Shown here: positions 29,056 through 33,108 of the stretch, piece after piece
How the letters are laid out: the number at the start of each line of letters is the position of its first letter
How positions within the stretch are numbered: the first letter of the stretch is position 1
NCBI RefSeq assembly: GCF_017084525.1
Contig: NZ_CP070950.1
Location: forward strand, 1,674,001 to 1,738,000
Origin: Conexibacter sp. SYSU D00693
GTDB taxonomy: Bacteria; Actinomycetota; Thermoleophilia; Solirubrobacterales; Solirubrobacteraceae
DNA: 64,000 nucleotides
Reading direction: 5' to 3'
Made by a program: the position numbers and the translations under genes
Notes under the pieces: generated by a model
Database searches by the model: none
What the model saw: only the letters and a program-made list of their open reading frames with translations
Told to the model about the DNA's origin: nothing

Positions 29056-30018
29056 CTAGCGCGACGGGTCGGTGGCCTGGCCGAGCGGGACGCCCGGGAG
29101 CGCCGGTGCGAGCCGGCGCAGCACCTTGCGCAGGACGCGGAAGGCCGCCCGCGGCTGGTCGTGCTGGTTGACGAGCCCCGAGTCCCAGGACTGGCGGCCG
29201 GGCGGCGTGTTCCAGTGGTAGAGGTACACGCGCTGGATGCGCTTGCGGTCCAGCGGGACGAGCTTGTCGAAGACCCAGCGCGTCGCCTTCGCGGCGTGCG
29301 CGGAGGACTCGTTGAGCGGCACGTTGACCTTCGTGCGGCGCTTCACGATCCCGCCCGTCTCGGTGAACCAGACCTTGCCGCGCGTCGCGCGCAGCAGCGC
29401 GCGGGTGCCCGAGGTGCGGAAGCGGTTGGCGTCGATGTAGTTGTGCAGGCCCCAGATGCCCGGGTCGAAGCCGGCCGCGCGGCGGAAGCTGCGCACCCAC
29501 TTGGCCATGTTGGGCATGTCGAGCAGCTCGGAGGCCAGGACGCGGCACGAGCGGCACTCGCGGCGCATCGCCTTCCAGTAGGCGGCGACGAGCGCGGGCC
29601 GGTTGCAGGTCGGCTCGCCGCAGTGGTTGGCCTCGTTCCACGTCGCGAACGTCGTCACCCACGGGTAGCGCGCCCGGAACTTGCGGAACTGGAACTTGAA
29701 GAGCTCGGGCTTGGGCAGCGAGCGGCGGTTCGTGCGCGAGTGCCAGAACCCGACGAGCGGCTGGACGCCCGCCGCCTTCGCGCCCTGCAGCCAGGCGTCG
29801 AGCTCGCGGACCTGCCACGGGTGGTTCATCGCGTCCCACGAGACGGCGAGGCGGGCGTGGCGGATGCCCGTCTCGGCGAACAGCGGGTCGGCGAACATGT
29901 CCGGCTTCTGGTCGCCGATGCCGACGACGAGCGCCTGCGCCGGAGCGGGCGCGACGGCCGCCGAGCCGGCGGTCACGGCCGCCAGCGCGACCGCGAGGAG
30001 CACGAGCAGGCGCCTCAT
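29056..30018 (-). CDS. Secreted clan GH-A glycoside hydrolase-like protein (paralogue 1)
   Basis: 320 residues with a Sec signal peptide (MRRLLVLLAVALAAVTAGSA). The mature protein is a single TIM-barrel-like domain: FATWNEANH carries the presumed acid/base Glu and VWFTETGG the presumed nucleophile Glu, the pattern of clan GH-A (GH5/GH39-like). Four Cys residues (CGEPTC, CRSC) probably make disulphides. The substrate is unknown. It overlaps the cupin gene (ATGA) and has a paralogue at 30439-31350. Confidence 0.75.
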   Translation of the reverse strand: MRRLLVLLAVALAAVTAGSAAVAPAPAQALVVGIGDQKPDMFADPLFAETGIRHARLAVSWDAMNHPWQVRELDAWLQGAKAAGVQPLVGFWHSRTNRRSLPKPELFKFQFRKFRARYPWVTTFATWNEANHCGEPTCNRPALVAAYWKAMRRECRSCRVLASELLDMPNMAKWVRSFRRAAGFDPGIWGLHNYIDANRFRTSGTRALLRATRGKVWFTETGGIVKRRTKVNVPLNESSAHAAKATRWVFDKLVPLDRKRIQRVYLYHWNTPPGRQSWDSGLVNQHDQPRAAFRVLRKVLRRLAPALPGVPLGQATDPSR

Positions 30019-30401
30019 GCGGCCTCGTCGCCCGGCTCGGGCTCGGTCAGGACGGTGTCCTCGTGGCGGTACGCCGGGGCGCAGCAGCACAGCAGGACGA
30101 GCGGCACCTCGCCGGTGTTCCACATCTTGTGCTCGATCCCTGGCGGGATGACCGCGCAGTCGCCCGGCCGGACGTCGCGCTCCTCGTCGCCGATGCGCAG
30201 CCGCCCCGAGCCCGCGGTGAAGAAGTACAGCTCCTCGGCCTCGCGGTGGAAGTGGGCGGTGGTGGCGGCGCCGACGGGGACGGTCGCCTCGGCCAGCGAC
30301 TGGTTGCGCGCCGGCGTCCAGGCCGGCCCGCACACCTCGCGGATGGTCGAGCCGTCCTTCGTCGTGAAGGGCTCGCGGTCGTCGAGGTTGGCGACGTGCA
30401 C
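30015..30401 (-). CDS. Cupin-domain protein
   Basis: 128 residues forming one cupin barrel: motif 1 HFHREAEELYFFTAG provides the His/His/Glu metal ligands and motif 2 is PGDCAVIPPGIEHKMWN. Small proteins of this type bind sugars or serve as isomerases or dioxygenases; the reaction here is not identifiable. It lies between two secreted glycosidase paralogues and is coupled to one by ATGA, so a carbohydrate link is inferred. Confidence 0.85.
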   Translation of the reverse strand: MHVANLDDREPFTTKDGSTIREVCGPAWTPARNQSLAEATVPVGAATTAHFHREAEELYFFTAGSGRLRIGDEERDVRPGDCAVIPPGIEHKMWNTGEVPLVLLCCCAPAYRHEDTVLTEPEPGDEAA

Positions 30402-30438: not shown

Positions 30439-31350
30439 CTAGCGGCGGGCCTTGAGCCGCGCCTTGAGGACGTCGAGCGCCGGGCGGATCGAGCCGTCGG
30501 GGCCGATGAAGCCCGAGTCCCAGGACAGCGCGTCCGGGTGCGAGTTCCAGTGGTAGAGGTACACGCGCCGGATCCGCTTGCTCACCTTGGCGAGCTTGTC
30601 GAACAGGAAGGCCGTCGCCTTCGCGGCGTGCTGGGCGCCCGTGCCGGCGAACCTCACCGAGGACTTGTTGCGCCGCTCGACCACGCCGCCGGTCTCCGTC
30701 AGCCAGAACTCGCCCTTCACGGCGCGCAGGAGCTTCTTGGTCTCCTTCGTCGTGAACTGGTTGACGTCGACGTAGTTGTGCAGGCCCCAGTACTTGGGCG
30801 TGCGACCCGCCGCGCGGACGAAGTCCTGGGCCCAGCGGGCGATGTTCTTGTGGTCGACGAGGTCGACGCCGAGGATCGTGCAGGACGGGCAGGCCTTGCG
30901 CAGCGCGAGCCACTGCTTGGCGACGATCTTCGCGTTCTTGTTGATGTTCCCCTCGTTCCACGTGGAGAACTCGCGGATGAACGGCCAGCGCTTGCGGAAG
31001 CCGCGCAGCGAGCGGGCGAGCTCGGCCGGCGACGGGGTGACCGACTTGCGGCCGGGGCGGCGCGAGCGGTCGAAGGTCACGAGCGGGCTGATGCCGTCCG
31101 CCTTGGCATCGAGCAGCCACTGGTCGACGGCCGGGAGGGTGTCGGTGTCCTGCAGGACGTCGTAGGGGACGGAGATCCGCGCGTGGCGGATGCCGAGCTC
31201 CGTGAACCGCTCGTCGTGGAGGAAGTCGGTCTTCTGGTCGGCGATGCCGATCGTCACGCCCGCGTTCGCGGCGGGGGCGACGGAGAAGGCGCAGAGCAGG
31301 ACGGCGGGCAGGACGAGCCCAAGGCGGAGGCGGCGCATCGACCTCATCAT
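30439..31350 (-). CDS. Secreted clan GH-A glycoside hydrolase-like protein (paralogue 2)
   Basis: About 303 residues, homologous along its length to the product of 29056-30018: same signal peptide type, VGIxDQK start of the mature part, EFSTWNEGN acid/base and FWLTETGG nucleophile, CPSC pair and the end YLYHWNSHPDALSWDSGF. Start chosen at 31350 (ATGATG); ATG 31338 is equally possible and leaves the signal peptide intact. Substrate unknown; the two enzymes probably act on the same exported or environmental glycan. Confidence 0.75.
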   Translation of the reverse strand: MMRSMRRLRLGLVLPAVLLCAFSVAPAANAGVTIGIADQKTDFLHDERFTELGIRHARISVPYDVLQDTDTLPAVDQWLLDAKADGISPLVTFDRSRRPGRKSVTPSPAELARSLRGFRKRWPFIREFSTWNEGNINKNAKIVAKQWLALRKACPSCTILGVDLVDHKNIARWAQDFVRAAGRTPKYWGLHNYVDVNQFTTKETKKLLRAVKGEFWLTETGGVVERRNKSSVRFAGTGAQHAAKATAFLFDKLAKVSKRIRRVYLYHWNSHPDALSWDSGFIGPDGSIRPALDVLKARLKARR

Positions 31351-31420
31351 CGGCCATATCGCCGGCGACATGAGCGGGTCAGATCGCCTCCCGACCGCAG
31401 CCGGTCAGGGCCCCGGAAGA

Positions 31421-31466: not shown

Positions 31467-32384
31467 CTAGGCGGGCACCGCCTCCTCGTCGGGCGCCTGG
31501 AGCGGCACGCCGATGACCTTGAGCCGGCGGGTCAGCGCGGTGAACGCGTAGCCCATGACCTCGTCACGGGTCTTGCCGAAGATCTCGTAGTTGTCCGCCG
31601 CGTCGACGCCGGGCGGGACGAGGACGCCGCTGGCGATCGGGATGAGCTCGAAGAGCCGGGCCTGGATGCGCTTGCGCAGCGCCGGGTCCTGCGCCGCCTG
31701 CTGCAGGAACCAGGTGCCGTAGGCGACGTGACGGTGCTCGTCCTGCGAGATGAGCCGGAAGCCCTCGAGGAAGCCGGGCATGATGCCGGCCTGCTCGAAC
31801 TGGTCGGTGATGTTCGCCTGCCCGGTCAGGGCGAGCGTCCCCTCGATGACCATGTGGTAGGTCACGACGAAGTCGACCTTCGCCTCGCGGTCGCCCGGGT
31901 CGCGCAGCAGCCGCTGGTTGGCCTCGACGAGCTTGTCGTCGAACAGCACCTTGAAGGCGTCCGAGACGTCCTCGCGCGCGCGGTCCAAGCGCGACTCGAA
32001 GGTGCCGTCGTAGCCGATGACCTGCTCGTAGAAGCGGTTGAAGTGCTGGGCGTGGCGGGCCTCGTCGACCTGCTGGGTGCAGAGGAACGCCTCCTCGGCC
32101 TGGCTCTCGTAGGCGCCGACCAGCCCGTTGAACTGGGTCGCCACGCGCTCCTCCCCGATGAAGAACGACGACAGGCCCCAGACGATCGCGTCCTTGTCGG
32201 CGTCCGAGAGGCCGGCCCAGTCCTCCTTGTCGCGCTCGAAGGAGATCGTGTGCGACTGCCAGTTCTGGCGCTCCCACAGCTCGTAGAGCTGCTGGGGCGT
32301 CATCAGCTTGACCGAGGACAGCTTGGACTCGTCCGTGATGGTGGCGACGTCGCCCTGCTGGGTCAGGTCGAGGAGGGTGCTCAT
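31467..32384 (-). CDS. R2-like ligand-binding oxidase (R2lox)
   Basis: 305 residues with the ferritin-like di-metal fold of ribonucleotide reductase R2: ligands E78, E108, H111 (VDEARH), E181, E216 and H219 (DEHRH). R2lox is set apart from R2 by a Val-Tyr ether crosslink near the metals; the matching Val81 (EERV) and Tyr176 (YHMVIEG) are both here, and there is no nrdA nearby. R2lox proteins hold a Mn/Fe cofactor and a fatty-acid-like ligand; their reaction in the cell is not established. A TAGCGT box ends 6 nt from the ATG. The divergent TetR gene probably regulates it. Confidence 0.88.
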   Translation of the reverse strand: MSTLLDLTQQGDVATITDESKLSSVKLMTPQQLYELWERQNWQSHTISFERDKEDWAGLSDADKDAIVWGLSSFFIGEERVATQFNGLVGAYESQAEEAFLCTQQVDEARHAQHFNRFYEQVIGYDGTFESRLDRAREDVSDAFKVLFDDKLVEANQRLLRDPGDREAKVDFVVTYHMVIEGTLALTGQANITDQFEQAGIMPGFLEGFRLISQDEHRHVAYGTWFLQQAAQDPALRKRIQARLFELIPIASGVLVPPGVDAADNYEIFGKTRDEVMGYAFTALTRRLKVIGVPLQAPDEEAVPA

Positions 32385-32390
32385 GGCGCG

Positions 32391-32420
32391 ACGCTAGAAC
32401 GCGGGTTGACACTGCGTCAA
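32391..32420 (-). promoter_or_regulatory. Promoter of the R2-like oxidase gene
   Basis: On the minus strand TTGACG (32420-32415), 18 nt, TAGCGT (32396-32391), then 6 nt to the ATG, predicting a leaderless or almost leaderless mRNA. The -35 lies inside TTGAC-N5-GTCAA (32406-32420). Confidence 0.6.
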
Positions 32421-32440
32421 GTCGAGTTCGACACCGTGTC
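32406..32440. promoter_or_regulatory. Dyad cluster, candidate TetR operator
   Basis: Three inverted repeats lie in the 91-bp divergent gap: TTGAC-N5-GTCAA (32406-32420), GTCGA-GT-TCGAC (32421-32432) and GACAC-C-GTGTC (32430-32440). They cover the -35 of the oxidase gene, so binding by the TetR product would block its promoter. Confidence 0.5.
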
Positions 32441-32462
32441 CGGTGGCGGCCGCGAGGCCGGG

Positions 32463-32468
32463 TATGCT
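32463..32468 (+). promoter_or_regulatory. -10 box of probable leaderless tetR promoter
   Basis: TATGCT followed by 7 nt and the ATG at 32476. No Shine-Dalgarno sequence is seen in those 7 nt. Confidence 0.55.
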
Positions 32469-32475
32469 CGCCGCG

Positions 32476-33108
32476 ATGGCACCCGTGGAGCCCCGCGAAG
32501 GACCGCAGACCGCCAAGCGCGCGCAGGTGCAGGCCGACGTCCTGCGCGCGACGGAGACGCTGCTGGGCGAGGGCTCGACCTACGCCGACCTCAACGTCGA
32601 GCGGATCGCCACCGCCGCGGGCATCTCGCGGACGGCCTTCTACTTCTACTTCCGCGACAAGCGCGAGCTGCTGATGCGCCTGGCGGCCGACGTCTCGGGA
32701 TCGCTCTACGAGCGCGCCGACCGGTGGTTCACCTCGGGCGGCGACACGGTCGGGGAGATGCGCGAAGCGCTCACCGCCATCGCCGAGCTCTACCGCGACC
32801 ACGGCGCGCTCCTGCGCGCCATCGTCGAGGTCTCGACCTACGACCCGGAGATCGCGACGTACTGGCGTGGGCTGCTCGGGCGCTTCGTCGACGCGACGGC
32901 GCAGCGGATCGTCACCGAGCAGCAGGCCGGGCGGGCGGGCGAGATGGACCCCGCCGCGACGGGCTTCGCGCTCGTGTGGATGACCGAGCGCACGCTCTAC
33001 CAGGAGCTCGTGCAGGGCAGCGCGGGCTCCTCGGCCGACGCGGTGGAGGCGCTGGCCGGCATCTGGCTGCGCGCCGTCTACGGGCGCGTCGAGCACCTCG
33101 AGGGCTAG
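32476..33108 (+). CDS. TetR-family transcriptional regulator
   Basis: 210 residues. The N-terminal helix-turn-helix is canonical (NVERIATAAGISRTAFYFYF, then RDKRELL). The C-terminal ligand domain (about residues 75-205) is of the acyl-CoA/lipophilic-ligand TetR type by length and helix pattern, but the ligand cannot be read. ATG 32476 is preferred over an upstream in-frame ATG because of the -10 box. Divergent from the R2-like oxidase gene, which it likely represses. Confidence 0.88.
   Translation: MAPVEPREGPQTAKRAQVQADVLRATETLLGEGSTYADLNVERIATAAGISRTAFYFYFRDKRELLMRLAADVSGSLYERADRWFTSGGDTVGEMREALTAIAELYRDHGALLRAIVEVSTYDPEIATYWRGLLGRFVDATAQRIVTEQQAGRAGEMDPAATGFALVWMTERTLYQELVQGSAGSSADAVEALAGIWLRAVYGRVEHLEG

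What the first reader, a model, noticed from the sequence alone, without database searches (positions are those of the whole stretch)
31467..32475. R2lox rather than ribonucleotide reductase, with TetR control
All six metal ligands and the crosslink residues Val81 and Tyr176 of R2-like ligand-binding oxidases are present and nrdA is absent. Automatic annotation would call it ribonucleotide reductase beta. The divergent TetR gene and three dyads over the promoter suggest induction by a lipophilic ligand, a clue to the unknown R2lox substrate.
Basis: partly seen in the sequence, partly recalled or inferred. Interest (0 to 1): 0.58.

Follow-up and report, generated by a model that had tools for sequence, protein, structure and literature searches.

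The report
R2lox-like oxidase in lipid-oxidation regulon
A gene that would be mislabelled as a DNA-precursor enzyme is really a metal-dependent oxidase from a little-known sister branch of the R2lox family, and its control sequence is shared with genes that oxidise alkanes and fats, which points to an oily substrate.

Summary
Window 31467-32384 (-) encodes a 305-aa ferritin-like protein with all six metal ligands and Val81/Tyr176. It is not a ribonucleotide reductase: the tree parts it from NrdB/NrdF with 100/100 support, its model fits R2lox (Z 28-31) better than NrdB (Z up to 25), and the genome's only RNR large subunit is class II NrdJ. It is not a standard R2lox either: it lies in a sister clade, scores under every NCBIfam R2lox cut-off, and has Arg110 and Gln189 where R2lox has Lys and Tyr175. 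One sister subclade has a C-terminal extension; all six of its ten members that I scanned carry an SCP2 lipid-carrier domain there. The TetR is EthR-like. Two copies of a TTGACACNGTGTCAA-type operator, 22 bp apart, overlap the promoter and are conserved in orthologues; the third dyad is not. In seven congeners, 16 of 17 other near-perfect operators sit beside oxidation genes (AlkB, P450, GMC oxidoreductase, Baeyer-Villiger-type monooxygenase, acyl-CoA ligase, beta-oxidation, SDR). Best reading: a dimetal lipid or alkane oxygenase released from repression by a lipid. Metals, crosslink, substrate and repressor binding are untested. New variant of a known kind.

The parts
31467..32384 (-). R2lox-like dimetal oxidase gene, 305 aa
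32151..32153 (-). codon of Glu78, metal ligand (others: Glu108 32061-32063, His111 32052-32054, Glu181 31842-31844, Glu216 31737-31739, His219 31728-31730)
   Evidence: invariant in 33 of 33 rows
32142..32144 (-). codon of Val81, crosslink partner by homology
31857..31859 (-). codon of Tyr176, crosslink partner by homology
32055..32057 (-). codon of Arg110, Lys in canonical R2lox
31818..31820 (-). codon of Gln189, position of Tyr175 of GkR2loxI
   Evidence: role of Tyr175 from PMC4118035
31830..31832 (-). codon of Ala185, position of tunnel residue Ala171 of GkR2loxI, Phe in RNR R2
   Evidence: PMC6399176
32406..32420 (.). proximal operator TTGACACTGCGTCAA, 1 mismatch to TTGACACNGTGTCAA
32428..32442 (.). 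distal operator TCGACACCGTGTCCG, 3 mismatches, 22 bp from the first
   Evidence: sequence, spacers
32391..32420 (-). putative oxidase promoter: -35 TTGACG (32420-32415) inside the operator, 18 bp, -10-like TAGCGT (32396-32391), then ATG: possibly leaderless
   Evidence: inference
32463..32468 (+). putative -10 (TATGCT) of the TetR gene, 7 bp before its ATG
   Evidence: sequence, inference
32476..33108 (+). EthR-like TetR regulator (ATG 32476 preferred; GTG 32443 also in frame)
   Evidence: EthR_C 72.6 bits, cut-off 27; EthR 3e-15

Best explanation
The gene encodes a dimetal (Mn/Fe or Fe/Fe) oxidase of a sister branch of the R2lox family. An EthR-like TetR repressor from the divergent gene binds two 15-bp operators that cover the oxidase promoter (the -35 element lies inside the proximal operator) and shuts the genes off; a long-chain lipophilic ligand releases it. 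The oxidase then activates O2 and oxidises a long aliphatic or sterol-like substrate reached through a tunnel left open by Ala185; the product goes to alcohol oxidation, CoA activation and beta-oxidation by enzymes whose genes carry the same operator. Shown by sequence or model: family, ligands, operator conservation, operator copies at other genes, SCP2 domains on relatives. Inferred: metals, crosslink, O2 chemistry, substrate, repressor binding, direction of control.
For: R2lox side of the family. Ligands, V81/Y176, Ala185 invariant. EthR-like divergent TetR. Operator conserved upstream of orthologues; 18 of 34 clade rows have adjacent TetR and operator, 14 neither, 2 operator only. Operator copies: 52 in 9 genomes against 2 for the mirrored control, 13 against 0 in the own genome. 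At up to 1 mismatch in 7 congeners, 16 of 17 sites off the R2 locus adjoin oxidation genes, among them AlkB with a perfect operator over its start. Three of the own genome's 4 GMC genes over cut-off lie at sites (p about 6e-7 if 4300 genes and 24 gene slots are assumed, counted after the fact). SCP2 on 6 of 6 scanned members of a sister subclade. Printed alkane claim for GkR2loxI.
Against: The oxidase is not in an operon with lipid genes; the link is only the operator. Seven EthR_C regulators pass the cut-off in the genome and at least one other sits on the same operator (L110), so the regulon may belong to a paralogue. Targets in congeners are often orthologues, about eight types, not 16 independent cases. 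At 2 mismatches several own-genome sites have no lipid link (L113, L114, L117). One clade of orthologues lacks TetR and operator altogether, so this control is not essential to the enzyme. TetR-operator matching rests on 3 independent pairs. Gln189 in place of Tyr175 may mean a different reaction.
Confidence: 0.6

Rival explanations
1. It is simply a divergent canonical R2lox with the same reaction as the M. tuberculosis and Geobacillus enzymes.
For: Same ligands and crosslink pair, same fold, R2lox as best named relatives.
Against: Sister clade with 98/91 support; Lys to Arg and Tyr to Gln in 49 of 49 rows of groups A, B, B2, C; under all R2lox cut-offs.
Confidence: 0.15
2. It is a lipid desaturase, or an oxidase that detoxifies xenobiotics, and the TetR answers to a foreign hydrophobic compound rather than to a growth substrate.
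For: EthR-like TetRs sense hydrophobic compounds (recalled); P450 and Baeyer-Villiger-type genes on the operator fit detoxification; a desaturase role for R2lox was proposed in print (PMC4118035).
Against: AlkB, acyl-CoA ligase, acyl-CoA dehydrogenase and 3-hydroxyacyl-CoA dehydrogenase on the same operator fit catabolism better.
Confidence: 0.22
3. It is the small subunit of a class I ribonucleotide reductase.
For: Pfam family name.
Against: No class I large subunit found; tree, fold and Ala185; no tyrosine in the last 26 residues.
Confidence: 0.01

Closest known systems
[quoted passage not shown] tuberculosis Rv0233 (3EE4/4AC8), GkR2loxI (4HR0), S. erythraea R2lox (7QBP), SaR2loxII (7QBK)
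   Same: Fold (Z 28-31), six ligands, Val/Tyr pair, Ala in the tunnel position, Gly before the first ligand, Arg before the last His
   Different: Sister clade; Arg110 for Lys, Gln189 for Tyr175, Gly87 for Pro; under NCBIfam cut-offs
GkR2loxI (GK2771) alkane monooxygenase cluster (PMC10867098)
   Same: R2lox-type gene tied to alcohol oxidation and beta-oxidation genes
   Different: There one gene cluster, here a shared operator at scattered loci; another clade; activity not tested here
EthR/EthA of M. tuberculosis
   Same: EthR-family repressor gene divergent from a monooxygenase-type gene (EthA arrangement recalled)
   Different: The oxygenase is R2lox-like, not a flavin monooxygenase; a Baeyer-Villiger-type gene with the same operator does occur in one congener (L134)
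AlkB alkane 1-monooxygenase (8F6T)
   Same: In congener G006 an AlkB gene carries a perfect copy of the operator
   Different: Unrelated membrane diiron enzyme; no match found in the own genome

Membership tests
R2lox (canonical) | Two-His four-Glu dimetal site with Glu as first ligand | tested here: met
   E78, E108, H111, E181, E216, H219
R2lox (canonical) | Valine and tyrosine that form the ether crosslink | tested here: met
   Residues present, V81/Y176; also found in 3 NrdB-side rows, so weak
R2lox (canonical) | Crosslink actually formed | not testable with these tools
   needs mass spectrometry or a crystal structure
R2lox (canonical) | Mn/Fe cofactor | not testable with these tools
   needs metal analysis
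R2lox (canonical) | Fatty-acid ligand in an open tunnel | tested here: inconclusive
   Ala185 at the tunnel position; tunnel and ligand not measured
R2lox (canonical) | Six R2lox-unique residues of PMC3824934 (passages) | tested here: not met
   3 of 6: Gly77, Ala185, Arg218 present; Pro is Gly87, Lys is Arg110, Tyr is Gln189 (positions mapped by me; exceptions are known in that paper)
R2lox (canonical) | Falls inside the clade of solved R2lox | tested here: not met
   Sister clade; 12-row R2lox clade 98/84, window's clade 98/91
R2lox (canonical) | Over an NCBIfam R2lox cut-off | tested here: not met
   Best 137.1 bits, cut-off 194
R2lox (canonical) | No conserved C-terminal tyrosine of RNR R2 | tested here: met
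   No Tyr in the last 26 residues
Class I RNR small subunit (NrdB/NrdF) | Groups with NrdB/NrdF in a tree | tested here: not met
   Parted with 100/100 support
Class I RNR small subunit (NrdB/NrdF) | Partner NrdA/NrdE in the genome | tested here: not met
   Only class II NrdJ found
EthR-like TetR (neighbour) | EthR_C and TetR_N domains over cut-off | tested here: met
   72.6 bits (cut-off 27) and 35.7 (24); EthR best in PDB
EthR-like TetR (neighbour) | Binds the operator and is released by a hydrophobic ligand | not testable with these tools
   needs EMSA and ligand screen

The most novel reading that the evidence does not exclude
A separate, widespread actinobacterial family of dimetal lipid oxygenases, sister to R2lox and marked by Gln for Tyr175 and Arg for Lys, some with a fused SCP2 domain that hands over the lipid; in this lineage one member serves as an alternative to AlkB in an EthR-type alkane/lipid regulon.
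Probability: 0.4. Interest if true: 0.75.

Novelty: new variant of a known kind. Interest (0 to 1): 0.58.

Why it matters
The role of R2lox proteins was called unknown in 2014 and 2019 (PMC4118035, PMC6399176; passages), and the 2024 alkane claim rests on crude lysate. Two independent genomic clues here, an operator shared with AlkB, P450 and beta-oxidation genes and SCP2 lipid-carrier fusions in the sister branch, make the question directly testable: which lipid releases the TetR, and does the enzyme oxidise it. The branch also looks large: 61 of 198 sampled Actinomycetota genomes match an R2lox model but only 9 pass its cut-off (the weak matches among the 61 include NrdB-type genes).

Tried and rejected
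Ribonucleotide reductase: rejected by genome content, tree and fold. Val+Tyr as proof of R2lox: rejected, L075-L077 on the NrdB side carry all eight residues. Third dyad as an operator: rejected, it lies in a spacer that differs between orthologues. TetR/operator co-occurrence as statistical proof: the Fisher p of 6e-5 is not to be trusted, since my de-duplication left three genomes in twice (L005/L027, L006/L031, L008/L032) and the rows are related; on the tree only 3 independent pairs exist on supported branches. The L118 protein looked SCP2-like to me by eye; Pfam and NCBIfam gave nothing, so it is not used. The AlkB search in the own genome was empty without a positive control. Operator strings in papers: none of 5 exact strings found, and such strings rarely appear in text. 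R2lox with SCP2: no paper in the library held both words; a search on RNR with SCP2 sterol-binding and ferritin-like gave listings only, none of the 10 shown holding the SCP2 term; R2lox/TetR listing, of which only PMC3824934 was opened for passages; five terms on TetR control of alkane hydroxylases found none. PMC10811679 was opened for passages and concerns another Mn/Fe family. The downstream secreted protein 30439-31371 gave no Pfam, NCBIfam or PDB match. Tunnel geometry was not measured.

Dropped rows: L048 (fragment) left out of the tree; L021-L023 and L049 too short for it; L024 and L034 left out (too little upstream DNA). Trait states were typed by hand, operator threshold 3 mismatches. 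The 17 sites are those with at most 1 mismatch in G000-G006, leaving out those at the R2/TetR locus, including G004:C109 (a TetR at a contig end, taken by me as the split-off partner of that genome's oxidase).

Full report
What is there. The finding's coordinates cover one - strand gene, 31467-32384 (305 aa), and the 91 bp between it and the ATG of a divergent TetR gene at 32476. The protein keeps four Glu and two His ligands, Val81 and Tyr176; all eight are the same in 33 of 33 orthologue rows. Relatives were found on 20 contigs of GTDB genomes, the records titled Conexibacter, Solirubrobacteraceae/-ales, Thermoleophilaceae or Actinobacteria, at 61-77% identity; 78 of 101 related genomes hold a homologue.

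Not a ribonucleotide reductase. The genome (one contig, 97% complete) has a single PF00268 gene, this one, and a single RNR large subunit, which is class II NrdJ. phmmer against the PDB lists R2lox chains and one aldehyde deformylating oxygenase, but no chain I recognise as NrdB at E 1e-3. A maximum-likelihood tree of 80 rows parts 67 R2lox-type rows from 13 NrdB/F rows with 100/100 support. The AlphaFold model (mean pLDDT 90.5, 18 sequences) aligns to R2lox entries at Z 28.4-31.2 and to the best NrdB at 24.9. Ala185 stands where 13 of 13 NrdB/F rows have Phe; in GkR2loxI a Phe there blocks the fatty-acid tunnel (PMC6399176, passages).

Not quite R2lox. Inside the 67 rows, canonical R2lox with all three PDB references form one clade (12 rows, 98/84) and the window protein lies in the other (55 rows, 98/91; 54 rows, 94/93); some long rows (L059, L062, L074, L089x) are unsure. 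Groups A, B, B2 and C of that clade (49 rows) have Arg at 110 and Gln at 189 without exception; canonical R2lox have Lys in 10 of 11 and Tyr in 11 of 11. That Tyr (Y175 of GkR2loxI) was suggested to take part in substrate oxidation (PMC4118035, passages). Of six residues called R2lox-unique (PMC3824934, passages; positions mapped by me) three are met and three not. NCBIfam's R2lox models score 98-137 bits, under cut-offs of 194-346. Three relatives (L050-L052) have Ile for Val81; V72I in GkR2loxI still forms the crosslink (PMC6399176).

Lipid-carrier fusions. One subclade (10 rows) has roughly 140-190 more residues behind the oxidase domain. Six of the ten were scanned and all six carry an SCP2 domain over the Pfam cut-off there (23.0-41.5 bits, cut-off 21.3). 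Four were not scanned, and in one of these (L101) the tail reads unlike the rest, perhaps a frameshift. A carrier domain for sterols and other lipids fused to the oxidase suggests lipid substrates for the wider branch. The window protein has no such domain.

Regulation. The TetR has an EthR_C domain and EthR as best solved relative (3e-15). Two copies of a palindrome, TTGACAC-N-GTGTCAA with 1 and 3 mismatches, lie 22 bp apart between the genes. The palindrome stands upstream of many orthologues, in five congeners twice with the same 22-bp step (G001, G002, G004, G005, G006), while the spacer differs. In congeners its left half is a good -35 box with 17-18 bp to a -10-like hexamer just before the ATG, so a bound repressor would block polymerase; this is inference. 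Of 34 clade rows with enough upstream DNA, 18 have both an adjacent TetR and the operator, 14 have neither, 2 have the operator only. With only 3 independent pairs on the tree this supports but does not prove that regulator and site belong together.

Other targets. The operator occurs 52 times in 9 genomes at up to 2 mismatches, the mirrored control 2 times; in the own genome 13 against 0. At up to 1 mismatch in the seven congeners and away from the R2 locus there are 17 sites. Sixteen lie at: P450 with a desaturase-family gene (L109), P450 with another EthR-like TetR (L110), GMC oxidoreductase (L112), GMC and SDR (L121, L125, L131), SDR (L128), P450 followed by acyl-CoA dehydrogenase (L122, L127), P450 (L132, L133), Baeyer-Villiger-type flavin monooxygenase (L134), acyl-CoA ligase (L123, L126), 3-hydroxyacyl-CoA dehydrogenase/enoyl-CoA hydratase (L129), and AlkB (L124), where a perfect operator overlaps the start of the reading frame (the SDR beside L121 was read by eye, not scanned). 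The odd one is L111 (ferredoxin oxidoreductase and GntR). Many are orthologues of each other, about eight target types in all. At 2 mismatches the own genome adds two further GMC genes, a CoA transferase and an acyl-CoA ligase, but also a histidine kinase, a small secreted protein and sites without a clear target. Three of the own genome's four GMC genes over cut-off and two of about 19 P450s (20 matches, one gene split) are at such sites; taking 4300 genes and 24 gene slots, chance is about 6e-7 and 0.005, counted after the fact. No AlkB match was found in the own genome (no positive control).

Mechanism. The simplest account is an oxygenase that oxidises a long aliphatic or sterol-like molecule, switched on with alcohol oxidases, acyl-CoA ligase and beta-oxidation when the TetR's lipid ligand appears. 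This fits the claimed alkane activity of GkR2loxI (PMC10867098; introduction and first part of the results read), which however used crude lysate, with 11-21% difference between wild type and the metal-ligand mutant. Open: whether this TetR or a paralogue (seven EthR_C proteins over cut-off) governs the other sites, and what the substrate is.

Verdict. The protein is best filed as R2lox-like rather than R2lox: a member of a sister branch for which I found no name in my searches. What is added is the regulon and the SCP2 fusions, which give the substrate question concrete tests.

Noticed in passing
L099:4902-6245, L100:4872-6278, L066, L069, L070, L071: R2lox-like oxidases fused to a C-terminal SCP2 lipid-carrier domain (6 of 6 scanned).
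   Followed up: partly
L075, L076, L077: NrdB-side proteins that carry all eight R2lox hallmark residues, Val and Tyr included, so that motif alone misleads; they have Phe at the Ala185 position.
   Followed up: no
L050, L051, L052: Relatives with Ile at the crosslink valine, Gly at the Ala185 position and Phe or Ser at Gln189: a further active-site variant.
   Followed up: no
window 30439-31371 and 29056-30333: Two similar-looking secreted proteins without Pfam or PDB match (the first tested) flank a cupin gene; relatives of the first lie near the oxidase in 9 of 26 neighbourhoods compared, window included.
   Followed up: partly
L110:1957-3845 (own genome near 1.044 Mb): A P450 gene divergent from a second EthR-like TetR with the same operator between them: the same layout with another oxygenase.
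   Followed up: partly
L109 (own genome near 3.2365 Mb): The only perfect operator of the own genome lies between a desaturase/hydroxylase-family membrane gene and two P450 genes in a row.
   Followed up: partly
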